From Actinomycetota bacterium (lineage in GTDB: Bacteria > Actinomycetota > Acidimicrobiia > Acidimicrobiales > Ilumatobacteraceae): a stretch of 32,509 nt of DNA. Every line of letters starts with the position of its first letter. Within the stretch, counting starts at the first letter, position 1. Under the pieces are notes generated by a model, which was not told where the DNA came from, made no database searches, and worked only from the letters and a program-made list of their open reading frames with translations. Shown piece by piece: positions 156-12,737 of the stretch. The DNA lies in the NCBI GenBank assembly GCA_009923855.1, contig RFST01000005.1:1-32509 (forward strand). Direction: 5' to 3'. The position numbers were made by a program, and so were the translations under genes.

Positions 156-647
156 TCAGGGCTTGGTGACTGTGAACCCATGGTGGGCCACCTCCAGCTC
201 CTCGACGGGGACCTCCTCGGCATCAGCGGAGAAGTCCGGCCCGGTCCAGCGAACCGGGAACGCGTCGATGATGTTCCACGACCGCAGACGCTTGCCGGTG
301 GCGGACAGCATGGTGACCGCACACGTGGATCGATCGAGCACGTTCTTGTTCTTGTCGAACCCGGATCCGACCGTGATGTCAAACCAGTTGAACAGGTTGT
401 TGTCTTCGGTGACACCCCGCTTGAACACCAGGTTCTCCCAGGTGACGCGTCCGGGGAATTTGTGCTCGAAGCCGTTGTTGCCACCTTCGGCATACGACTC
501 GACTTCGACCTGCATCTTCAGGCCGGACACCGCCGTGAATCGGCCGATGCGATGGCCGTCGACCTCCAACAGGAATGAATGCGTGTTGGAGGTGGCCTTC
601 GTGAACAGATGGTCACGGCCTTTGGGTGCAGGTTTGTAGGTCGGCAT
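156..647 (-). CDS. eCIS / phage tail tube protein (T4 gp19-like), paralog 2
   Basis: 163 aa ORF with gp19-like features: 'HSFLLEVDGHRIGRFTAVSGLKMQVEVESYAEGGNNGFEHKFPGRVTWENLVFKRGVTEDNNLFNWF'; adjacent to a second tube and a sheath gene. Confidence 0.9.
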   Translation of the reverse strand: MPTYKPAPKGRDHLFTKATSNTHSFLLEVDGHRIGRFTAVSGLKMQVEVESYAEGGNNGFEHKFPGRVTWENLVFKRGVTEDNNLFNWFDITVGSGFDKNKNVLDRSTCAVTMLSATGKRLRSWNIIDAFPVRWTGPDFSADAEEVPVEELEVAHHGFTVTKP

Positions 648-652
648 GGTCG

Positions 653-823
653 CTATGCGTCACGCAGGTTCTCGATGGATCGCCGATTGAGTTCGGCGAC
701 GATGTTGATCATCCTGACCCGGTCGCGATGCGCCAGGTCGAGAAGTTCGGAGAGAGGCCAGTGCAGGTGGTACGCGAGAAACGCCACCTCGTCCCAGAGC
801 GCGGACTCCGGGTAGCGCTTCAC
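653..823 (-). CDS. small eCIS-associated protein (DUF6760-like), GTG start
   Basis: Hand translation of the minus strand: VKRYPESALWDEVAFLAYHLHWPLSELLDLAHRDRVRMINIVAELNRRSIENLRDA*. Starts at GTG inside a GTGA overlap with the stop of the upstream gene. Resembles the short 'YPxxxLxEEVAxxAYHxHW' proteins of actinobacterial eCIS loci. Not in the supplied ORF track (short, GTG start). Confidence 0.8.
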   Translation of the reverse strand: MKRYPESALWDEVAFLAYHLHWPLSELLDLAHRDRVRMINIVAELNRRSIENLRDA

Positions 824-1359
824 GCCTCGTGTGCCGGCTCGCGCTTGACCTCTTCAATGCGCGCTCGGCGCGGGGCGGTGGCCATCGGGACCTCATCGTC
901 GTCGGCATCATCAACGTTCTCATCGTCGTCAATGTCGTCATCGAAGCGGTCGCCGCCGTCGAAAGCGGCTGCGGTGTCGGACTCGCCACTGTCACCCCGG
1001 CTGGCCGGGGTGACAGTGCGAGCGTCCTCGACGGATCGGACCAAGGCCTCGATCTCGTCGTCCGTACCGAAGTTCACCACGCTGTAGAAGTCCTGGAGAT
1101 ACGCCAGGTCGGCGGCAAAAAGCGCCTCGATATCGCGAGGGGTCACCCGGGACTTGGTGCCCAGGTTGACCACGACTCGCGACAGCACGACGATCGTGAG
1201 ATAGGGGTCGTCAGCATCTCGGACCTTCGGGTCGCGCAACGGCTCGAGTTCATCACGAGCTGTTGCGAGACGCATCGTCCCCTCTCGGTGAAGGGACCCG
1301 TCGTCATCGACGAGGCCCTTCGGAAGAAGGAACTCAAACTCGGTTCGCAATCCTGACAT
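820..1359 (-). CDS. eCIS phage tail assembly-like protein with Asp-rich C-terminus
   Basis: 179 aa 'MSGLRTEFEFLLPKGLVDDDGSLHREGTMRLATARDELEPLRDPKVRDADDPYLTIVVLSRVVVNLGTKSRVTPRDIEALFAADLAYLQDFY', typical of the tail-assembly-like protein between tube genes in actinobacterial eCIS loci. Confidence 0.75.
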   Translation of the reverse strand: MSGLRTEFEFLLPKGLVDDDGSLHREGTMRLATARDELEPLRDPKVRDADDPYLTIVVLSRVVVNLGTKSRVTPRDIEALFAADLAYLQDFYSVVNFGTDDEIEALVRSVEDARTVTPASRGDSGESDTAAAFDGGDRFDDDIDDDENVDDADDDEVPMATAPRRARIEEVKREPAHEA

Positions 1360-1398
1360 TTACCCCACCTCCGTGGTGCCGCCAATCACCCGTTTGGG

Positions 1399-1833
1399 TC
1401 AGGCGCGTTCCATGTACTCGTGAGCGATCGTGACCTCTTCAATCATGATGTCGTCTGAGCCGGCATCGAGGTCGCTGGCGCTCCACTTGGCAATCCAGCC
1501 GTTCTCGAAGTTCCAACGGCCGATCTCAGTCGACGTCTGGTCGTAGATCACGACGGAGCCACTCTTACGCTCAACCTGCCCGTCGACAACGGTCTGGTAC
1601 CACTCGACCAGAGAGTTGTCAGACGACAGACCGCGCTTGAGCACGATGTCGGGGAAGCTGATCCGGCCCGGACGCTTCCGGGTAATCACCTTTCCATCAG
1701 CGAGGGTGTCCTGGAAGGTCACCACTTCACTCTCGTAGCCCAGCCCGGAGACGGCGGTGAATCGAGCAAGCTCGACCCCATCGATCTCCAGACCGAACTG
1801 GGAACCCAGATATTCGGCATCATGTTCGCTCAC
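1399..1833 (-). CDS. eCIS / phage tail tube protein (T4 gp19-like), paralog 1
   Basis: 144 aa; 'GLEIDGVELARFTAVSGLGYESEVVTFQDTLADGKVITRKRPGRISFPDIVLKRGLSSDNSLVEWYQTVVDG...' is the gp19 tube signature. Confidence 0.9.
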   Translation of the reverse strand: MSEHDAEYLGSQFGLEIDGVELARFTAVSGLGYESEVVTFQDTLADGKVITRKRPGRISFPDIVLKRGLSSDNSLVEWYQTVVDGQVERKSGSVVIYDQTSTEIGRWNFENGWIAKWSASDLDAGSDDIMIEEVTIAHEYMERA

Positions 1834-1892
1834 GGCGTGTCACTCCTTCGGTGTGATGTTGTTGTTTGGGACGTATGAAGGTCCCCGGCCGA

Positions 1893-3467
1893 TCAGGCCG
1901 AGGAGTCCTTCAGCTGGCTGATACGGAAGATCACGAACTCCGCGGGCTTCACCGGAGCGATACCCACCTCCACGATCAACTTGCCCTCGTCGATGGACTC
2001 GGGCGGGTTGTTCTCGGCGTCGCACTTCACGAAGAAAGCCTGATCGGGGGTGGCACCGAAAAGCGCACCATCGCGCCACAGGCCACGGAGGAACGCACCC
2101 ACGGTGCGCTTCACGCCCTCCCAGAGCTTCTGATCGTTAGGCTCGAACACCGCGAACTGCGTGCCCTCCATGATCGCGGTTTCGATCATGTTGAACAGGC
2201 GTCGCACGTTGATGTAGCGCCAGTCGGAATCCGACGACAGGGTGCGCGCGCCCCACACGCGGATACCGCGGGTGCCGAACGGGCGAATGCAGTTGATGCC
2301 AATCGGGTTCAACAGACCCTGCTCGGCCTTGGTGATCGGCAATTCAACATCGAGGGCGCCACGAACGATTTCGTTTGCGGGCGCCTTCCAGACACCGCGC
2401 GTCTCGTCGACGCGGGCCCACAGGCCGGCCATGTGGCCACACGGCGGCACGAGGATCTCGTCGTCGCCGTTGGTCGGGACCGGATTCGACACCTTGATCC
2501 ACGGGTAGTAGAAGGCGGCGAAGGCCGAGTCGTACATGGCGACATCGCTGCGCCATTCCTTGATCTGCTGCACCGACATGCCCGGGGGCGAGTCGAGCAC
2601 GGCCATGCGGTTGGCCTGGCCCTCGCAGTGGTTCATCACCGCGGTCTGCACGGCCTTCCACATTCCGAGATCGACCGAACCGTCTTCCTTGGTGGCGGCG
2701 GTGATCAGGTCCGGCACCATCACCATGGTGACGTCGTCGGCGATCACGAGGCCGTTGATGCCGTTGCGAGCAGTCTCGGAGCCGGCGAAGCTGGCGGCTT
2801 TAACCTCAACCGGCTCACGCGGTGCGGGAGCGATCGGGTACAGACCGGGCTTGGGCTGAGCGAGGTTCAAGTCAAGTTCTGGTGTGACGTCGACCTTGGT
2901 GGCGACCTTCACGAACTGCGACTCGGCAAGTGCCGTCTCGATGTTGGTGTCACCTGAGGACAGGGTGAGGCCTTCGTAGGTCTCGACCACAGCGCCGTCC
3001 TTGATGACCTCAAGGTCGATAGTCGGGATCGGATCGCCACCCTCAACCTCGATCGGCGCACCGTTCGACACTCCGACGGTGATGCCATCGGCAGGCCCGA
3101 TGGATTCGAACTCGAGCACCGAACCCAGAGCGCGGTCGGCGGCGGGCAGCGCCATCTGACCGGACTCTTCTGACGGGCGGTTGTGCGGGATGCGCACGAT
3201 GTAGCAGACCGATCCTCCATTGAGGAACCAGCCGTACACCGCGTGCGGCAGCATGGCACCGGGGACAAACCCACCGTAGAGCGATTCGAACTGCGCCCAG
3301 TTCGTAACGAGGCGCGGCTTGAGACCGTCGGGATCGCTGGGATCGTCTTTCGGGGCCTTCTCGGTGAAACCGACAAAGGCGGCGATGGCGGTAGCGCCGG
3401 CGGAGAGGCTGCCCGATCCGGACGGCACCTCCTCGACGTACACACCTGGGGTCAAATAACTGGGCAT
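1893..3467 (-). CDS. eCIS / phage tail sheath protein
   Basis: N-terminus MPSYLTPGVYVEEVPSGSGSLSAGATAIAAFVGFTEKAP and C-terminal 'RRLFNMIETAIMEGTQFAVFEPND..LW..VKRTVGAFLRGLWRDGALFGATPDQAFFVKCD' are sheath hallmarks. Start trimmed from the track's 3515 to an ATG at 3467 preceded by GGAGG. Confidence 0.95.
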   Translation of the reverse strand: MPSYLTPGVYVEEVPSGSGSLSAGATAIAAFVGFTEKAPKDDPSDPDGLKPRLVTNWAQFESLYGGFVPGAMLPHAVYGWFLNGGSVCYIVRIPHNRPSEESGQMALPAADRALGSVLEFESIGPADGITVGVSNGAPIEVEGGDPIPTIDLEVIKDGAVVETYEGLTLSSGDTNIETALAESQFVKVATKVDVTPELDLNLAQPKPGLYPIAPAPREPVEVKAASFAGSETARNGINGLVIADDVTMVMVPDLITAATKEDGSVDLGMWKAVQTAVMNHCEGQANRMAVLDSPPGMSVQQIKEWRSDVAMYDSAFAAFYYPWIKVSNPVPTNGDDEILVPPCGHMAGLWARVDETRGVWKAPANEIVRGALDVELPITKAEQGLLNPIGINCIRPFGTRGIRVWGARTLSSDSDWRYINVRRLFNMIETAIMEGTQFAVFEPNDQKLWEGVKRTVGAFLRGLWRDGALFGATPDQAFFVKCDAENNPPESIDEGKLIVEVGIAPVKPAEFVIFRISQLKDSSA

Positions 3468-3612
3468 GGATACCTCCAACTCGTGTGGGAACCCACACCG
3501 TAGCCCATCTGACACCCCTTGGAGAAAGGTCTATTCCATAAGACAAAAAGTTCAGTCCCACGGCTCACACGCCTTCGACAGCGGGGATTGCCAACCACGA
3601 GCGTCCAGCCGT

Positions 3613-4002
3613 TCATGGCACCATCACCGTGAATTGACCCGGCACCATGATCGAGATCGCACCACCGAATGCGCACATCGCTTTCGATGAGTTGTTCAGT
3701 GCCGGCTTGTTGCCGATCATCACCGTCGGAGAACCAGGTGCCCACGGCCCCGGGACATTTGGGATACAGGGCATAGGCGTCAACACCCCCATCGCTGCGG
3801 CTGTGGCCGACGCAACCTGCGGATTCGCCATCGACATGCACATGCCGAACGGCGCGATGTTGACCATCGGCTTGTTGTCCATGATCGTGGCTGCCGCCGG
3901 ACCACCCGCGTTCACCATGCCCACTGGCAACACGTTCAACGCCGACGGTGCCGCGCCAAACGTGCACATCATCTGTGCGCCCGATGACACCAAAATGCCC
4001 AT
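3613..4002 (-). CDS. PAAR-like (DUF4280-type) spike-tip protein
   Basis: 129 aa 'MGILVSSGAQMMCTFGAAPSALNVLP..TIMDNKPMVNIAPFGMCMSMANPQVA...PCIPNVPGPWAPGSPTVMIGNKPALNNSSKAMCAFGGAISIMVPGQ'; PAAR-like pattern with regular Cys. Confidence 0.85.
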   Translation of the reverse strand: MGILVSSGAQMMCTFGAAPSALNVLPVGMVNAGGPAAATIMDNKPMVNIAPFGMCMSMANPQVASATAAAMGVLTPMPCIPNVPGPWAPGSPTVMIGNKPALNNSSKAMCAFGGAISIMVPGQFTVMVP

Positions 4003-4550
4003 CAGGCTGCGGCCTCCGTGGTTGTGGTGGCCGACACGACCCGCGCGTCACCCGCAACATAGGAACCCACCACTGCACCGCGATCGGGGAAGACCAGCAC
4101 GCAGACCACGGTGCGGTCTTCATCTTTGTTCCAGCCATCGAAACTGGGCAGCAGATACGACACGAACAGCCCGTCGGCCAGTGTCAGGCCGAACTCCGAC
4201 TGCAGTTGAGCAAGGCAGGCAGCATCGGCCCAGAGCGCCAGCTCGGCCGCACCGGGATATGCCGACTCCGTGCTATCGACGAGCGCGAATACCTCTTGGG
4301 TGTGCGGCTCTGCGCACGGCACCAGGGCAACGGAATCGATGTCACCCTCGGCATCGGCCGCATCGATGCAATCGCCCGCGCGGAGATCGAATACCGACCA
4401 TGACCCGGCGGCGATCACCTCGCCGGACTCGGCGCGGATTTCCGCTGTTCCGCCACATCCGACCAGCAGCCCGACCCCGAGAAGTACATACGACAACGCT
4501 CCCACACGAGTCGATCTCGGGGTACCCGGGCGTAACCGGGTGAAGGGCAT
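4002..4550 (-). CDS. septum-formation-like lipoprotein
   Basis: Signal plus lipobox 'GALSYVLLGVGLLVGCGG'; 'FDLRAGDCID...VALVPCAEPHTQEVFALV' is typical of the Septum_form family. Start trimmed to MPFTRL (ATG ending at 4550). Stop overlaps the next start as TGATG. Confidence 0.7.
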   Translation of the reverse strand: MPFTRLRPGTPRSTRVGALSYVLLGVGLLVGCGGTAEIRAESGEVIAAGSWSVFDLRAGDCIDAADAEGDIDSVALVPCAEPHTQEVFALVDSTESAYPGAAELALWADAACLAQLQSEFGLTLADGLFVSYLLPSFDGWNKDEDRTVVCVLVFPDRGAVVGSYVAGDARVVSATTTTEAAA

Positions 4551-4623
4551 GCTGGCCACAGCGGTCAGGCTCCTTCGCTGGGGAAACGCTCCGCGCACAC
4601 CTTTCACAACGTTTCCACAACAG

Positions 4624-5229
4624 ATGTCACATGCCAGATGGCAGACTCGCTACATGCCGGCCGCGGATCCGTCACCACAGCACCCGACATCGGCGGGCAC
4701 AACAACGTCGGCGCTGCTTCATGATTTGCGTGGCCCGCTCCATGCCGTGATCGGGAGATTGGACCTCGCCGCGCAAGGTCTCGATTCCACCGATGTCGAC
4801 ACCGCCCGCCACCTCACCGCCGCACGCACGGCCGCCACCCACATGGCGGAACTGATCTCCGACCACGACAGCGCGGAGCCGGCGCGCCTGGCTGCGATCA
4901 TCGCCGACGCCGTCAACATCGTCGAGGCGCTGCACCCCGATGTCGTGATCACCGAAGTCGGCGAACCATCCGACATCATCCTCAGCGACCACCTCGCCGC
5001 TGTCCGGATCCTCGTGAACCTGATGACGAACAGCGCGCGACACGGATCGCGCACCCTCACCATCACGCACGTGATCGACCCACCAGCGATCGATATCGAC
5101 GACACCGGACCCGGAGCGCACACGGCCGACATCGGTGACGGGCTGACCCTTACGTTGTCCATCGCCGCCGATCTCGGCCTCACCGCGTGTCCCTCACCAG
5201 CCCGGGGCTGGCGGCTGATGCTGCCCTGA
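4624..5229 (+). CDS. minimal histidine-kinase-like protein (H-box plus N/G1 boxes, no sensor domain)
   Basis: 'ALLHDLRGPLHAVIGRLDLAAQ' (H-box-like), 'VRILVNLMTNSARHG' (N-box), 'IDIDDTGPGAHTADIGDGLTLTLSIAADLG' (G1/G2-like). Start at ATG 4624 or 4654; the upstream extension in the track is probably spurious. Confidence 0.65.
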   Translation: MSHARWQTRYMPAADPSPQHPTSAGTTTSALLHDLRGPLHAVIGRLDLAAQGLDSTDVDTARHLTAARTAATHMAELISDHDSAEPARLAAIIADAVNIVEALHPDVVITEVGEPSDIILSDHLAAVRILVNLMTNSARHGSRTLTITHVIDPPAIDIDDTGPGAHTADIGDGLTLTLSIAADLGLTACPSPARGWRLMLP

Positions 5230-5290
5230 CCGGTCCATCCCCACGCACCGTCACAACCACCTCCGGTCGGCGATGTGCGACACTTGACGT

Positions 5291-6187
5291 GTGGCCGACA
5301 TGAAATCTCTCATCCGCCGGCAGGTGCGAAAGCACTCACCCGAGTTGGCCAACCTCGACAACAAGCGACGCCGACTCAGCGGACAGGCTCGCCGCTACAA
5401 GGGCAAAGTCAACCGCTACGGACGTGACATCAAGATGCCGAAGGGGTTCAAGCCGCCCCGCGGAATGAAATTGGTGAACCCCGCCACCGCTGGATCAGCC
5501 ACCACCGATGCCGACACCGAGTCCGATGCTCACACCGCCGCCGACACGCCCCCCGCCGTTAACGGCAACCGGCGACTGATCATCATCGCTATCGCCGTCG
5601 TCGCCATCTTGGCCGTGCTCACGGTGATCGGCCTGGTCGTCATCCCACGAGCCGTGGACTGGTGGCAGGATCGCGGCACCGACGAGAGCGCAGCGACGAC
5701 AACGGTTGCCACCACCGTCGCTCCAACAACCACTGTTGCCACGCCGACCACCACCGTGCCCGTCGTGACGATCACCACATGGGGTCCCGGCAGTTGTGTG
5801 ACCGTCACCGATGACCTGGCTCGTCCATCCACCTGCGATGACGCCACCCTCGTGGTCACTGCCGTCACTGATCATCCGGACACACCGTTGACATCGGACG
5901 AGATCACCGAGGCGCAGACCATCCTCGCCAACCTCGGCGTGGACATCACCATCGACGGCATCCTCGGTCGCCAAACACTCACCGCACTCGATGCCGCCAC
6001 CCTCACTGCGGGGCTTGGCACCGACGTCGACGATCACGCCAAACTCGCCGTGATCAGGTCCATCGGCATTCCCGGCAGCCTGGATCCCGACGGTCCGCGA
6101 CCGTTGCAGACCACGCCAGATGTCTGTGGAGACGGGTCGAGCTGGGTGGCGACCCCAGACGATGTGCTCTGCCTTGGCAGTCGCTGA
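5291..6187 (+). CDS. single-TM protein with basic cytoplasmic N-terminus and C-terminal peptidoglycan-binding-like domain
   Basis: Basic N-terminus, TM 'RRLIIIAIAVVAILAVLTVIGLVVIP', Thr/Pro linker (TTTVATTVAPTTTVATPTTTVP), then 'LTSDEITEAQTILANLGVDITIDGILGRQTLTALDAA' (PG_binding_1-like). Confidence 0.7.
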   Translation: MADMKSLIRRQVRKHSPELANLDNKRRRLSGQARRYKGKVNRYGRDIKMPKGFKPPRGMKLVNPATAGSATTDADTESDAHTAADTPPAVNGNRRLIIIAIAVVAILAVLTVIGLVVIPRAVDWWQDRGTDESAATTTVATTVAPTTTVATPTTTVPVVTITTWGPGSCVTVTDDLARPSTCDDATLVVTAVTDHPDTPLTSDEITEAQTILANLGVDITIDGILGRQTLTALDAATLTAGLGTDVDDHAKLAVIRSIGIPGSLDPDGPRPLQTTPDVCGDGSSWVATPDDVLCLGSR

Positions 6188-8692
6188 TCAGGCACCGATC
6201 GTCGGGACATCCACCGATGTCTCCACACCCGGTGACGGACGCACCGACACTGACGACAACACTGTCGTCGGGTCAACTGGGTCGACGATGACCACGACGT
6301 AGTCGACCGGTGCCGAGAAATCGGTGAGGGTGAACGAGCCATCAGATGCGGTCGTAGCTACCGCCACCGCCGTCGACGCCGGGCCCGCCGCATCGGGCAC
6401 ACGGTGCAGCCGCACCGTGAGCCCAGCGGCCGCCTCAATCACGCGCTCGGGTTCGAGATCGGCATCATCGTCGGCACCCTCACCATCGGGAAGCACTGCC
6501 ACTGCGCGTTCCACAGTGCCGACGACCGATGCCACTGGACCAACGGTCACATCGACAACCACCGGCCCCGGATCGACAATCGTGTCCGGCACCGTCACCT
6601 CGACCACCTCGGTGGTGGCACCCCGACGCTCCACACTCAAGGTGTACCTACCCGGCGCCACACCACCCATGCCGAACGCGCCAGCGGGTGTGGTCACCGT
6701 CATGGTCCGCACCACACGCACCCCATCGGACAGGGTCACCTGCGCACCTGTGACCGGAGTGCCCGCAGCAGTCGCGACCGTGCCCGTCACCGATGAGGTC
6801 GCCGGAACAACTCGCACAACAAGGTCACCACGTCGCGGTACCTCGCGGGAGATCTGCACCTGCTGTGCCGCAGCCCGGCCAGACTCGGGCGCCACGGTCA
6901 CGCTGTAATCGCCCGGCAGCGCCAACCCTTCAACTCTGAATCGTCCCGCGTCCTCACCACTGCCATCGACCGACACCGCCGTGCGCTGCACGCCATCAGC
7001 GGTGACCCGAACAACGACGCCTCCCACGCCAACACCAGCGGTGTTGACAACCCGACCGGCGATCGATCCGGTGGCCGCTGCCAACTCAACATCAACCGAG
7101 GCCGACCCACCTGCTGCAACCGACACACTCGCGGTCTCGGTCGCCAAACCGTCGGCACGAACGGTCACGTTGTACGTCGCCGGTCCGCCGAGGCCTCCAA
7201 TGCTGAACGACCCAACCGCCCCATCGGTCAGGCTGACCGTGCGTCGTTGCACCGTGCCGTCGCCGACAATCACTTCAGCGCCACCCACCGGGCCGAGAGG
7301 GCCCGACACCGTGCCGGTGACCGTCGCGTCCGCACCGAGCACCGTGAGCAGAACCTGATCCACCCGCTCACCTGCCCCAACGGACAGCCGGTGTGCCAGC
7401 ACGTCCTCGCCACCCCTGCGGACGACGAGGTTGTACTCGGCTGGTGCCGCAAGTCCCGACAGACGGAACGCGGTGCTATCGAGAACCCCCGTCACCACCC
7501 GTGCAGTTGGTGCATCGACCACCGGCCGAGCCAGCACCTCGAATGTGCCCTCTTCGGCACCGACGACACGACCGCTGATCTCTGCAACCTCACCCACCAT
7601 CACCAGATCGGCAAGTTCCAACCGTGTCGACGCCGCGACATCACCAGGCGCCACCGACACCGCAACTGCATCCCCGTGGCGGCTAACACCACCGGAGAAC
7701 ACGGTCTCAAAACCCGGAGCCGTCGCACGCAGAACGATGTCGCCCGTCGGCACTCCGCGAACCCTGGCCACACCGTCGGCATCGCTGGCACCCGCAGCCA
7801 ACACCATGACCGGGTCCGAGGCTGCGAGCGCCTCCACACGCGCCCCCACGACCGCTTGACCGGTCGCCGCCGATCGCACCTGAGCCACCATCACCGCTCC
7901 CGGGGTACGCGCCGCCTCCACCGGACGCGGTGACACGATGTCGTCGACCACGGCAGGCTCAGAGTCGCCAAGAAAGCGATCGAGTCCGCCAGCGAGAACA
8001 ATGCCAGCCGATGCCGCCACGAGGACCAGCGCTAGGAGTAGCGAACCGACGACCCCAAGGACCGGTCGACGCACCACGGGAACGTCGATCGTCACATCGG
8101 TGCCCGCATTCACTCCCAGGGTGACAATGGAACGACGAGGGCGACCCACCACCGGCCGGTCGCCCGTGATCGATACCCCGAGCGTGCGCACCGCACCGGG
8201 TTCGACCTCAACCCGCGAGCGCTCGAACGACACCTCCAATGCGCCACGTGGATCGCGTGCAACCGGCGCAACGATCACCGGCGATGCTGCATCGCTGGTC
8301 ACCACCAACCCCACACGCGACCGTCGTCCCCCATCGGCGATGGAGGAATCGGTGGTCACCCTGACCGGTGGTCGATCGACGACGGTCACCGGCAGCCGTT
8401 CGTACACCTCTCTCCCACCGGCATCGACGGAGGTGACCGCCACCACGAACAAGAACTCACCGCTGGGATGATCTGCCGGCACTGACACCGTGGCCGTGAC
8501 ACCCACCGACCCTGATGCCGGCACAGTGGGGGTGGCGTCGTCGAACGTGACCCATCCGTCGGGCGGGCCGAGCACCGCAACACGCACCGGTTGCGCCACC
8601 GGACTTGCATCGGTGTCGACGATGCTGATGTTGACGCTGGCGGTGGCTCCCGCAACGATCTCCAACGAGCCTGGACGCACCCCGATGAACAT
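6188..8692 (-). CDS. large single-TM protein with N-terminal Ig-like region and about six carboxypeptidase-regulatory-like repeats
   Basis: 834 aa. TM 'VLGVVGSLLLALVLVAASAGIVLAGG' after ~220 aa without a signal peptide, then ~80 aa repeats such as 'ATVTGTVSGPLGPVGGAEVIVGDG...FSIGGLGGPATYNVTVRADG', 'GSIAGRVVNTAGVGVGGVVVRV...FRVEGLALPGDYSVTV', 'SSVTGTVATAAGTPVTGAQVTL...FGMGGVAPGRYTLSVERRG'. Confidence 0.75.
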   Translation of the reverse strand: MFIGVRPGSLEIVAGATASVNISIVDTDASPVAQPVRVAVLGPPDGWVTFDDATPTVPASGSVGVTATVSVPADHPSGEFLFVVAVTSVDAGGREVYERLPVTVVDRPPVRVTTDSSIADGGRRSRVGLVVTSDAASPVIVAPVARDPRGALEVSFERSRVEVEPGAVRTLGVSITGDRPVVGRPRRSIVTLGVNAGTDVTIDVPVVRRPVLGVVGSLLLALVLVAASAGIVLAGGLDRFLGDSEPAVVDDIVSPRPVEAARTPGAVMVAQVRSAATGQAVVGARVEALAASDPVMVLAAGASDADGVARVRGVPTGDIVLRATAPGFETVFSGGVSRHGDAVAVSVAPGDVAASTRLELADLVMVGEVAEISGRVVGAEEGTFEVLARPVVDAPTARVVTGVLDSTAFRLSGLAAPAEYNLVVRRGGEDVLAHRLSVGAGERVDQVLLTVLGADATVTGTVSGPLGPVGGAEVIVGDGTVQRRTVSLTDGAVGSFSIGGLGGPATYNVTVRADGLATETASVSVAAGGSASVDVELAAATGSIAGRVVNTAGVGVGGVVVRVTADGVQRTAVSVDGSGEDAGRFRVEGLALPGDYSVTVAPESGRAAAQQVQISREVPRRGDLVVRVVPATSSVTGTVATAAGTPVTGAQVTLSDGVRVVRTMTVTTPAGAFGMGGVAPGRYTLSVERRGATTEVVEVTVPDTIVDPGPVVVDVTVGPVASVVGTVERAVAVLPDGEGADDDADLEPERVIEAAAGLTVRLHRVPDAAGPASTAVAVATTASDGSFTLTDFSAPVDYVVVIVDPVDPTTVLSSVSVRPSPGVETSVDVPTIGA

Positions 8693-10812
8693 CAGGACTC
8701 CACCGACGTGATGCTCAGATCCACCACAAGTTCTGACCCCACCACAACATCGACGAGCGTGGACGCAGAACGGCCGTCTGGGGTGGTGACACCGATGGTG
8801 TGCACACCAGGCGACACGTCGGCGATCGCGTAGGCACCCGCTGGGTCATCGGCACTGACCACGGTACGCATCACCCGGCCATCGTCAACCGTGACCACCA
8901 GTCCGCCGGTGCCCACACCGTCAACGCGCACCACACCGGTCACTGCCACCGTGGCCCGTTCAAGAGTGACCAGCACCTCATCAGCACTGTCCCCAGTCAC
9001 GAGATCGATCGCCACTGTGGCAGCCAAATACCCCGGGGCCGACACGCCGACCGTGTAGGTCCCGGGCACCTCCACTCCAGAAATGCGGAACGACCCTGCA
9101 GGCCCATCAACGGTTGCCGTGCTCGATGAGGTGGCCACCCGTTCGAGGTCGCCACCGCGCAACACCACCCGTGCCGAGCCGACCGGCAGTCCCTGGGCAT
9201 CGAGCACTCGACCGCTCACCACACCACGAGCTGCGGCGAGCACAACGTCGTCGAGGGTCGCCTCACCGCCCGCGTCGACATCGACCGCGCGGGACACCGT
9301 CACATACCCGTCGGCGGTAAACACCACGGTGATCGTTCCCGGCGCGGCGATATCGCCCACACTCCACGATCCGGTGACCGCATCGCTGCTCGAGCGCCGT
9401 TCCGTACCGTCACCCAGCACCGTGATCGACACCCCACCGAGTGGCTCACCAGAGCTGTCAGTCGTGCGTCCGAGCAGCGTCGCCGGGGCCGCTTCGAGGC
9501 GTAGTGGCGGCACCACAAATGCCTCGTCCGCATCGGTGCTGAACGACGTCGACAAAGGAATGTGGCCCGGCGCGGTGACCTCCAGGCGGTGACGACCAGG
9601 GGACGTGACCCCATCGATGCGCCCTCGGGCGCGTCGATCGTCGTCGACCTGCAACGACCCAGACAGCACCTCCGACGAGCCGACTGTCGTCAGGTTGTAG
9701 CTCACGGCGGCGACCGGGGCATCCACCGCTATGACCACCTCCGCCGACGATGTGCGGCCGGCCATGACCACTGTGTCGACGTCGACGTCCGTGGCTGGGA
9801 TCACCACCTCGGTGACCTCGACCGCATCAAATCCTGGACGGGAGAAGCGGAACAGATGTGTACCTCCGGTAATTCCCGTCACCGTCCATCTCCCATCGGC
9901 ATCGGTCGCTGTGGTGGCGACCGATGCCTGGGACCCGTCACCGAGATCGCGGAACACGTCGACCACGACCGACGCGAGTGGCACCTCACTCGCGGCATCG
10001 ATGACCCGACCGTCGACCACCGCCGTTGGCTGCACCTCGGCAACGCCGGCGACGAATCCAGGTGGCACTCGTTTGCCGATGACCTCACGGTCTGCGAGGC
10101 CCAGCACCACCAACGCGGTCACTCCGGCGACCACTGCAACACAGCCAGCGACCGCTGCACGCAAGACAGAGCGACGCACCCGTGGACGGTGCATGAACGT
10201 CACGAACTCCTCAACAGGTGCAACTCCGTCGGCCACTGCCGACACCCCGATGAGGCGTCGCACCGGTGTACCGACCCGGCGAGCCGGTGCCGTGATCGTC
10301 ACGTCCACATCGCGTCGCTCTCCGGCCAACAAACGCGAGTGCGTGATCGACAACCGTGACTGGGTCTCACCGGCGGGGTCACGCGTGGAGTACTGGACCT
10401 CGAGTGGGGTGTTTCCCGTGTTGGTGACCGTGGCCGTGGTCGCCGCGCCCACATGACCCGCAACCACTGACGGTGCAACCACTAAACGCATCGACGGTGC
10501 CGGACCAACCACCAACCGAAGGCGATGCACTGCCACGTCATCTGGGTCGCTCACCGAGGTGGCGCGCAGCACCGCATCGTGCTCCCCGGCGACCACGTCA
10601 TTGCCGACATGGACCTCGACGGTGGTCACCACCGTCTCGGCATGTGAGACCCGCACGACCGGCTGTGACGAGGTCAGCCAGGCCGTTCCGGGCAGGTCGA
10701 CGGACAGCGTGAACATTCCCGCCGTCGGCCGGTCATTGTGCAGTTCGACCGCGAGACGCGAGGGGCGACCGGGACGGAGGTCGATGCGGGTGTGGTCAAG
10801 ACCGATCTGCAT
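8692..10812 (-). CDS. large single-TM protein with N-terminal Ig-like region and about five carboxypeptidase-regulatory-like repeats (paralog of 6188-8692)
   Basis: 706 aa. Same architecture: TM 'VLRAAVAGCVAVVAGVTALVVLGLAD' at ~220 aa, then 'GVVSGRVLDAQGLPVGSARVVLRGG...FRISGVEVPGTYTVGVSAPGYLAATV' type repeats. TGATG stop/start overlap with the next gene. Confidence 0.75.
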   Translation of the reverse strand: MQIGLDHTRIDLRPGRPSRLAVELHNDRPTAGMFTLSVDLPGTAWLTSSQPVVRVSHAETVVTTVEVHVGNDVVAGEHDAVLRATSVSDPDDVAVHRLRLVVGPAPSMRLVVAPSVVAGHVGAATTATVTNTGNTPLEVQYSTRDPAGETQSRLSITHSRLLAGERRDVDVTITAPARRVGTPVRRLIGVSAVADGVAPVEEFVTFMHRPRVRRSVLRAAVAGCVAVVAGVTALVVLGLADREVIGKRVPPGFVAGVAEVQPTAVVDGRVIDAASEVPLASVVVDVFRDLGDGSQASVATTATDADGRWTVTGITGGTHLFRFSRPGFDAVEVTEVVIPATDVDVDTVVMAGRTSSAEVVIAVDAPVAAVSYNLTTVGSSEVLSGSLQVDDDRRARGRIDGVTSPGRHRLEVTAPGHIPLSTSFSTDADEAFVVPPLRLEAAPATLLGRTTDSSGEPLGGVSITVLGDGTERRSSSDAVTGSWSVGDIAAPGTITVVFTADGYVTVSRAVDVDAGGEATLDDVVLAAARGVVSGRVLDAQGLPVGSARVVLRGGDLERVATSSSTATVDGPAGSFRISGVEVPGTYTVGVSAPGYLAATVAIDLVTGDSADEVLVTLERATVAVTGVVRVDGVGTGGLVVTVDDGRVMRTVVSADDPAGAYAIADVSPGVHTIGVTTPDGRSASTLVDVVVGSELVVDLSITSVES

Positions 10813-10818
10813 GACCGC

Positions 10819-11682
10819 TCAGCAGTCGTTGTATTCGAAGGTCCGATTCTCACCGGCTGTCATACCGACCACCGTCAGGTCGGCTGGGTCCGGGGAGCCG
10901 TCCGTGATACCGCCATCGTCATCGACGATCGTGAACGGTTCACCCGACGACACGAGATCGAGATCGATTCCTCCGACCGTGCCATATCCGAACGAGTAGC
11001 AACCACCCCTGAGACTGAGACCATCGATGTCGGCTACGGAGGTGCCGATGCTCACACCATCGACGGTCCGTAGTGCTCCCGCAGCGTCGGTTTGCGACCA
11101 ACCCACAAGCACCAGTTCGGCCGGGCTCGGGCCACCCGCCTCGACGCAGAACTCATTCTCAAAACACGTCTGTCGGCCGTAGGGGTAGGCAAATGAGAAG
11201 TCACCGAATTCGTCGACGTACCTCGAAGCACCCATCACTGGATAGCTGTGGGCGGTGTCCGACAGCGTCGGCCCCAGCACCGCAATCAGAACATCGAGCA
11301 CCGGCGCAATCCCCATTCCGAAGCTCAATGGACCGACGGTGTCGGGCCCCACGAACATCGTCGCTGCAGTCGGCAGTGTGGTGGTCGTCGTGTCAGCCAC
11401 CGTGGTGGTCGGCACCGTGGACGACGGCGCAACGATGTCGGCAACCGGCGTGGTCGTGGCCACCGCAACCGACGTCGCGGGAGCCGGCGGCGCATCGGTT
11501 GCTGTCACCGATGCTGCCGTGATGGCCGTCGACGACTCGGGGGCCGACGTGACGATCACTGCCGACGGTGCGTCCTCTGATCCACAGGCACTCATCACCA
11601 CCGCTACGGCGGCACTCACAAGAAACAGACGGCCAGCCACGACACCAGCCTCGCACCTCACCCGACCGAACACCGACATCAC
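10819..11682 (-). CDS. secreted lipoprotein of unknown function
   Basis: Signal and lipobox-like 'LFLVSAAVAVVMSACGS', Thr/Val/Ala-rich linker, then a ~170 aa globular domain 'GPDTVGPLSFGMGIAPVLDVLIAVLGPT...'. Confidence 0.6.
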   Translation of the reverse strand: MMSVFGRVRCEAGVVAGRLFLVSAAVAVVMSACGSEDAPSAVIVTSAPESSTAITAASVTATDAPPAPATSVAVATTTPVADIVAPSSTVPTTTVADTTTTTLPTAATMFVGPDTVGPLSFGMGIAPVLDVLIAVLGPTLSDTAHSYPVMGASRYVDEFGDFSFAYPYGRQTCFENEFCVEAGGPSPAELVLVGWSQTDAAGALRTVDGVSIGTSVADIDGLSLRGGCYSFGYGTVGGIDLDLVSSGEPFTIVDDDGGITDGSPDPADLTVVGMTAGENRTFEYNDC

Positions 11683-11688
11683 CTCGGG

Positions 11689-12606
11689 TCACTCAGCGGG
11701 AATCTCGCCGTGCACCCACACGGCCGAGCCACGCGGCATGAGATCCTCCGACCAGATCCAATCCATCGCCGCGGTCGACACGCGCACACAGCCATGCGAG
11801 GCCGGATAGTCCGGAATCGAATAGGACCCGTGAACCGCGATACCTCCGTTGAAGTACTTCGGCCGGTAGATCGAACCAAGGTCACCGTCCCACCAGCCCT
11901 CTACACGTTCACGATCGACAGTGAACAGGCCGGGATCGGTGATCGAATCGCCCTGCTCGATCACCGATGGGTCGTTCTGATTCGGCTCCTCGTACGGGAT
12001 CTCCGAACCGGTTGACACATTCAGCACCCACCGCGTCGACCCCTCGACGATCACAAACCCCAGTTGCAGCGACTTGTCGACCTCGAACAGGGTGCCAGCC
12101 TCCGCGCGACCCATCGGCCGTTCGATCGGCCCGGACAGAAGGTCCGCCGTGGCTTGGTCAACCTCACCAGACGTCGTCAGGCCGTGATACTTCTGGAACG
12201 CCATCGTCGCTTGACGGCTCGTGACACCGAATTCACCATCGGTTGACTGCAACCAGAAACCGAGATCCACGAGACGCTGCTGGACTCTGGCAGCCTCCGG
12301 ACCCGAGTCGGTGCCGATTGCGACAAGAGGCTGCGCGAGTGGTGACGCCATCTGGGTCTCGCGCTCGGCGATGGTGGTCGTCGGGGCAGCAGTGGTGGTC
12401 GTCGTCGGTGCCGGGGCGACAGAACTGGTTGTCACAGTTATCTCCGGTACCTGAACCACCACGACCTCGGCCTGGGCCTCAGGCTCAATCAACGTGACCG
12501 CCACCGGTGCCGCCGCACTACTGATCATGGCGGCGCCGCATCCCACGAGCACGAGGGCACCCACGGGAACCGCGGTGAACCACAGAGTGGATGGACGGTG
12601 ACGCAT
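11689..12606 (-). CDS. L,D-transpeptidase (YkuD) with N-terminal peptidoglycan-binding domain
   Basis: Catalytic motif 'GGIAVHGSYSIPDYPASHGCVRVSTAAMDWIW'; PG-binding 'EAARVQQRLVDLGFWLQSTDGEFGVTSRQATMAFQKYHGL'; lipobox 'VGALVLVGCG'. Start trimmed to MRHRPSTLW. Confidence 0.9.
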   Translation of the reverse strand: MRHRPSTLWFTAVPVGALVLVGCGAAMISSAAAPVAVTLIEPEAQAEVVVVQVPEITVTTSSVAPAPTTTTTAAPTTTIAERETQMASPLAQPLVAIGTDSGPEAARVQQRLVDLGFWLQSTDGEFGVTSRQATMAFQKYHGLTTSGEVDQATADLLSGPIERPMGRAEAGTLFEVDKSLQLGFVIVEGSTRWVLNVSTGSEIPYEEPNQNDPSVIEQGDSITDPGLFTVDRERVEGWWDGDLGSIYRPKYFNGGIAVHGSYSIPDYPASHGCVRVSTAAMDWIWSEDLMPRGSAVWVHGEIPAE

Positions 12607-12737
12607 CGTGGACTCAACGCTAGAACGCCCGAACCTCGCAATGCCGTCATTGGTGCGCTCTCGCGATGCATCGTCGCCCAATCGTCATGATGTCGCCCTC
12701 CAACAGCGGCGTATGACCAACAATCTGGTATCGATTT

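What the first reader, a model, noticed from the sequence alone, without database searches (positions are those of the whole stretch)
156..12606. Contractile injection system embedded in an envelope-docking module
Sheath, two tubes, tail-assembly protein, DUF6760-like and PAAR-like genes lie beside five envelope proteins: septum-formation lipoprotein, PG-binding TM protein, two giant N-in/C-out repeat proteins, and a lipoprotein plus L,D-transpeptidase pair. Cytoplasmic CIS of Streptomyces are known to use a membrane protein to associate with the membrane; this set could be an analogous dock/wall-opening module in another actinobacterial lineage. Baseplate, ATPase and effector genes would lie left of the window.
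Basis: partly seen in the sequence, partly recalled or inferred. Interest (0 to 1): 0.7.

Follow-up and report, generated by a model that had tools for sequence, protein, structure and literature searches.

The report
Bacterial injection system with surface stalks
A marine actinobacterium encodes a phage-tail-like injection machine next to two long, apparently membrane-anchored repeat proteins that turn out to be rapidly diverging relatives of proteins already linked to this machine in Streptomyces, here expanded to five copies and joined to adhesin-like stalks.

Summary
The window holds one end of a contractile injection system (CIS) locus of an Ilumatobacteraceae MAG. A sister genome joins it, across about 4.5 kb, to baseplate, cap and further genes on contig C304 of the same genome. 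The two "repeat proteins" (RepA 8692-10812, RepB 6188-8692) are real, and their conserved N-terminal half is tightly linked to CIS. That half (two predicted Ig domains plus a transmembrane helix) is homologous to a protein beside the sheath in Streptomyces CIS loci with the Sco4256-4258 architecture. Published work calls Sco4256-4258 effectors. So the family is known. New here: each window-type locus carries a conserved trio of them after the cap gene, the third giant (about 2,600-3,900 aa, adhesin-type domains), and this genus adds RepA/RepB before the sheath.

The "envelope module" only partly holds. A Septum_form lipoprotein is linked to CIS across the family, a PG-binding-like membrane protein only in this genus. 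The L,D-transpeptidase is ubiquitous, and its lipoprotein partner also occurs in CIS-negative relatives. A tail-anchored zinc-ribbon protein at the CisA position is a separate dock candidate. Best reading: RepA/RepB are membrane-embedded CIS accessory proteins with outward stalks, more likely contact, docking or trigger parts than injected cargo. No function was shown.

The parts
156..647 (-). gp19-type tube protein (tube-initiator position)
   Evidence: Pfam PF06841 9.7e-39; only 65% identical to a near-clonal sister genome
653..823 (-). DUF6760 CIS protein, 56 aa
   Evidence: Pfam PF20546 1.2e-8
820..1359 (-). tail-assembly-chaperone-like protein
   Evidence: PHROG 508 9e-5; conserved between tube and DUF6760 in most compared CIS loci
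1399..1833 (-). gp19-type tube protein
   Evidence: Pfam PF06841 2.3e-35
1893..3515 (-). contractile sheath
   Evidence: Pfam sheath domains 4.7e-22 and 4e-20; best PDB match 8bky, 4.6e-141, a model deposited with the Streptomyces CIS paper
3613..4002 (-). DUF4280 / PAAR-like protein
   Evidence: Pfam PF14107 6.4e-34
4002..4607 (-). Septum_form lipoprotein, CIS-linked in relatives
   Evidence: Pfam PF13845 5.4e-8; close to sheath, cap or trio genes in 14 CIS-positive genomes
5291..6187 (+). single-TM protein with weak PG-binding match; strong relatives only in the four genomes of the genus that carry RepA/RepB
6188..8692 (-). RepB: N-domain, TM, CarboxypepD_reg repeats (834 aa)
   Evidence: Pfam PF13620 6.7e-34; N-domain profile
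8692..10812 (-). RepA: N-domain (two predicted Ig sandwiches), TM, about five CarboxypepD_reg-type repeats (706 aa)
   Evidence: Pfam PF13620 1.5e-33; AlphaFold2 of residues 1-250, pLDDT 91.8; repeats modelled at lower confidence
10819..11682 (-). lipoprotein, not CIS-specific
   Evidence: no Pfam family; relatives next to the LDT in CIS-negative genus members, but also directly before RepA in G044
11689..12681 (-). YkuD L,D-transpeptidase, neighbour, not CIS-specific
   Evidence: Pfam PF03734 1.8e-12; relatives in all 54 genomes tested

Best explanation
RepA and RepB belong to the same family as the CIS-associated membrane proteins found beside the sheath in Streptomyces (Sco4256-4258 type). 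Each has a conserved head of two Ig-like domains predicted to be in the cytoplasm, one transmembrane helix, and a variable outer part, here a stalk of beta-sandwich repeats. In this lineage the family has expanded to a trio after the cap gene, whose third member is a giant adhesin-like protein, plus the RepA/RepB pair before the sheath. Proposed mechanism: the head faces or binds the cytoplasmic CIS particle (inferred), while the stalk reaches through the wall to the surface (inferred) and helps position or trigger the machine at the envelope on contact (inferred). Shown here: homology, CIS linkage, order of the trio, domain make-up, faster divergence than the machine. Not shown: location, any binding, any role in firing.
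For: Homology: a profile from four N-domains (window and G044) finds the Streptomyces-type proteins beside the sheath over nearly its full length (G407 1.3e-18, G581 1.3e-16; S. griseus 2.5e-15, S. mutabilis 1.7e-15). The S. mutabilis and S. rochei members end in a ricin-type lectin, as reported for Sco4257/4258. The G407 sheath is a close match to PDB 8bky. Linkage. Trio: members group by position across families in the tree, trio3 in two clades. Outer parts are adhesive or carbohydrate-binding types (CarboxypepD_reg, Invasin_D3/Big_1, fn3, ricin lectin). The fold comparison of the N-domain gave Ig-type folds and no enzyme or toxin among the top matches. Sco4256 was recovered as a membrane glycoprotein. 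A separate cargo candidate exists: an eCIS_core protein between the second tube and the LysM gene in relatives; in Streptomyces lividans a DUF4157/eCIS_core protein is reported to bind a cargo effector. RepA/RepB diverge faster than the sheath against G044 (37-51% versus 92% identity).
Against: In S. coelicolor the triple deletion sco4256-4258 leaves most CIS lumens empty, and each protein lowers E. coli viability when expressed, which the authors read as effectors. Sco4256 was found in purified particles. Membrane orientation is not settled by charge: K+R is higher before the TM helix than after it in only 33 of 72 members, though both window proteins fit N-in. Orphan paralogs without CIS genes nearby exist in some relatives, so the head is not strictly CIS-bound. 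No interaction was tested. Fast divergence also fits toxins.
Confidence: 0.5

Rival explanations
1. They are CIS effectors: the proteins are loaded into or onto the particle and delivered, their outer parts acting on a target membrane or wall, as proposed for Sco4256-4258.
For: Casu 2023: empty lumens and loss of cell death in the triple mutant, reduced viability of E. coli expressing them; Vladimirov 2023: Sco4256 in particle preparations, some homologues with toxin- or lectin-like C-termini. Same N-domain here.
Against: Family members reach about 3,900 aa with long adhesin repeats, an awkward cargo; no catalytic domain found in the members scanned; Sco4256 recovered as a membrane glycoprotein; eCIS_core proteins are available as cargo.
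Confidence: 0.25
2. They are the dock itself: the heads recruit the CIS baseplate to the membrane, replacing CisA.
For: CIS linkage, a TM helix and a conserved Ig-type head. The zinc-ribbon protein at the CisA position has almost nothing after its TM helix in most members.
Against: A membrane protein at the CisA position is conserved in these loci, and in S. coelicolor CisA is required for contraction in situ although Sco4256-4258 are also encoded. Several paralogs per locus are more than a dock needs.
Confidence: 0.15
3. They are ordinary cell-surface adhesins that sit near CIS genes through shared inheritance, without working with the machine.
For: Orphan N-domain paralogs near hem biosynthesis genes with no CIS genes nearby; the lipoprotein and LDT beside RepA are not CIS-linked.
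Against: Strong association across a phylum, conservation of the trio after the cap gene in several families, and the CIS loss-of-function phenotype of the Streptomyces homologs.
Confidence: 0.1

Closest known systems
Sco4256-4258 family of Streptomyces CIS (Casu 2023, PMC10066040; Vladimirov 2023, PMC10020575)
   Same: Homologous N-domain of two Ig-like domains, one TM helix, variable C-terminus, CIS-linked
   Different: Five copies instead of one to three; outer parts are CarboxypepD_reg stalks and, in the trio, giants up to about 3,900 aa with invasin-type repeats in one species; sits in a 2 Mb genome of another class
CisA (Sco4242), membrane adaptor of S. coelicolor CIS (PMC12237407)
   Same: Single-pass membrane protein of a CIS locus with the N-terminus in the cytoplasm
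   Different: RepA/RepB were not compared with a CisA sequence; CisA is described with a disordered N-terminus and a solute-binding-like outer domain. The better positional match is the zinc-ribbon tail-anchored protein after the baseplate genes
Class IId (cytoplasmic) CIS of Streptomyces
   Same: Sheath 48-50% identical to Streptomyces-type sheaths, with tubes, DUF6760, spike, gp25, J and I baseplate proteins and a Pvc16 cap
   Different: AAA ATPase on another contig in close relatives; a Septum_form lipoprotein and the trio are locus members
T6SS trans-envelope complex
   Same: Membrane proteins tied to a contractile machine
   Different: No homology was looked for; named as an analogy only

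Membership tests
Contractile injection system of the class IId / Streptomyces type | Sheath, tubes, spike, gp25, J/I baseplate proteins and Pvc16 cap in one locus | tested here: met
   Sheath and tubes in the window; LysM/tube, spike, gp25, J, I on G039:C33; Pvc16_N on own contig C304; joined in sister genome G039
Contractile injection system of the class IId / Streptomyces type | AAA+ ATPase in the locus | tested here: inconclusive
   Close relatives carry a 40-42% relative on another contig; only weak generic AAA hits in the own, 86%-complete draft
Contractile injection system of the class IId / Streptomyces type | eCIS_core (DUF4157) cargo-associated protein | tested here: inconclusive
   Met in G110, G207, G190, G124; in G044 the slot is a 1308-aa Arg/Ser-rich ORF; in the own genome it falls in the gap
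Sco4256-4258 family | Homologous N-terminal domain followed by a TM helix | tested here: met
   Near full-length profile matches to named Streptomyces proteins; TM in the model
Sco4256-4258 family | Direct similarity to the S. coelicolor sequence Sco4256 | not tested
   That sequence was not at hand; other Streptomyces proteins of the same position and architecture were used
Sco4256-4258 family | CIS linkage, rarely outside CIS-encoding regions | tested here: met
   22 of 24 window-like-sheath genomes against 5 of 373 others, of which 2 have CIS genes adjacent and 3 do not in the stretches read
CisA | Outer solute-binding-like domain after the TM helix | not tested
   No CisA sequence or model was compared; described from the paper. 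RepA/RepB outer parts match CarboxypepD_reg
CisA | Cys-rich (zinc-ribbon) segment before the TM helix, gene after the baseplate genes | tested here: inconclusive
   Met by the tail-anchored protein on C304, not by RepA/RepB; matches to Streptomyces-type loci are weak, so homology to CisA is not established

The most novel reading that the evidence does not exclude
Some CIS of unicellular actinobacteria use a set of membrane-anchored, fast-evolving surface stalks, including adhesins of thousands of residues, as fixed receptors that aim or trigger a cytoplasmic injection machine at a touching cell or surface, a function that free particles give to tail fibres.
Probability: 0.3. Interest if true: 0.8.

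Novelty: new variant of a known kind. Interest (0 to 1): 0.5.

Why it matters
How cytoplasmic CIS meet the membrane and choose when to fire is open. This family is widespread with class IId-like CIS and is currently called effector. Members that look like long adhesin-type surface proteins make the alternative, a contact or trigger role, directly testable in Streptomyces and in cultured Ilumatobacter relatives.

Tried and rejected
Reading LDT and lipoprotein as CIS parts was rejected. Homology of the zinc-ribbon protein to CisA was tried by iterated profile and by a stricter profile and left open, because the iterated search also gathers general zinc ribbons. Positive-inside counts did not settle orientation. 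A fold comparison of the N-domain gave Ig/ASH-type folds (ciliary proteins, CEP192, intimin domains) and no function. A full-length RepA model from two sequences was poor around the second Ig domain and the TM region. Two literature searches found no paper joining Acidimicrobiia or membrane-anchored adhesins to CIS.

Full report
What is there. The window is a complete 32.5 kb contig (C282) of a 2.1 Mb, 86%-complete draft genome. Its family is Ilumatobacteraceae by one matching named record: the G128 contig and the named MAG contig of locus L181 have the same length and match position. On the minus strand lie, in order of transcription, an L,D-transpeptidase, a lipoprotein, RepA, RepB, then a Septum_form lipoprotein, a DUF4280 protein, sheath, tube, a tail-assembly-like protein, DUF6760 and a second tube; a TM protein with a weak PG-binding match runs the other way.

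The rest of the locus. Sister genome G039 (sheath 99% identical) carries the window's CIS part and the genes of contig C304 on one contig, with about 4.5 kb between them. There follow LysM/tube, VgrG-type spike, gp25, Baseplate_J and Tail_P2_I, then a zinc-ribbon tail-anchored protein, a Pvc16_N cap protein on C304, and a trio of proteins related to RepA/RepB, the last of 3,068 aa in this genome and 3,916 aa in G044. In relatives the slot between the second tube and the LysM gene holds an eCIS_core protein. The AAA ATPase is on another contig in G039 and G044.

What RepA and RepB are. The first 250 residues of RepA form two Ig-like sandwiches and a TM helix in a confident model, with Ig/ASH-type folds as nearest structures. 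A profile built only from the window and G044 pairs finds proteins beside the sheath in Streptomyces-type loci over nearly its whole length, and members from S. mutabilis and S. rochei end in ricin-type lectin domains, as published for Sco4257/4258. The G407 sheath closely matches PDB 8bky, which was deposited with the Streptomyces CIS paper. Sco4256 itself was not compared, as its sequence was not at hand.

Linkage. In 222 family genomes RepB's N-domain occurs in 18 of 28 with a sheath and in none of 194 without. In 397 Actinomycetota genomes a family profile is strong in 22 of 24 with a window-like sheath and in 5 of 373 others; in two of those five the fetched stretch shows CIS cap, baseplate or ATPase relatives beside it, and in three it does not, with the protein near hem biosynthesis genes and next to a large secreted beta-propeller/Ig protein (gene names for the hem neighbours are my reading of the sequences). 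The tree groups trio members 1 and 2 by position across families, though not every such branch is well supported, trio 3 in two clades, and the pair as separate branches. The Septum_form lipoprotein lies beside sheath, cap or trio genes in 14 CIS-positive genomes (read). The PG-binding-like protein has strong relatives only in four genomes of the genus, all with the pair. The LDT is in all 54 genomes tested, and the lipoprotein+LDT pair occurs in CIS-negative genus members, although the G044 lipoprotein relative lies directly before its RepA.

How it may work. In S. coelicolor Sco4256-4258 are called effectors because their loss empties the tube lumen and abolishes stress-induced death, and because each lowers viability of E. 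coli; Sco4256 was also recovered as a membrane glycoprotein. Members with thousands of residues of adhesin-type repeats, and the presence of eCIS_core cargo candidates, make a membrane-embedded stalk with a CIS-facing head the likelier reading here, at about 0.5, with effector at 0.25 and dock at 0.15. Against G044, RepA/RepB are 37-51% identical in the head and outer parts while the sheath is 92% identical, as expected for exposed or contested parts; toxins would also show this. Orientation is inferred from domain types and, for the two window proteins only, from charge.

The link of repeat proteins to CIS was a good call. The wider five-gene envelope module does not hold as stated, and the repeat proteins belong to a described family and are not a new analogue of CisA.

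Noticed in passing
window 156-823: At the left contig end the tube protein is 65% and DUF6760 89% identical to sister genome G039 while the sheath is 99%, suggesting exchange of the cargo-side cassette.
   Followed up: partly
L264 8805-10040, L266 7863-9170, L268 8013-9245, L265 3749-5017: Orphan N-domain proteins of about 410-435 aa in some Acidimicrobiia, near apparent hem biosynthesis genes, each next to a protein of about 807-830 aa; Pfam found PD40 propeller and ASH-type Ig matches in the L264 and L266 partners.
   Followed up: partly
L092 12702-16628: Arg/Ser/Pro-rich, apparently disordered 1308-aa ORF in the slot where relatives encode an eCIS_core protein.
   Followed up: no
L145, L147 (G284, G429): CIS of two 1.7 Mb genomes with sheaths 83-85% identical to the window's although of another family; the G284 contig appears as Nitriliruptoraceae in a named record: possible horizontal transfer.
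   Followed up: no
window 4270-5229 (+): Small histidine-kinase-like ORF (HisKA 5e-5, below the curated cut-off) between RepB and the sheath side.
   Followed up: no
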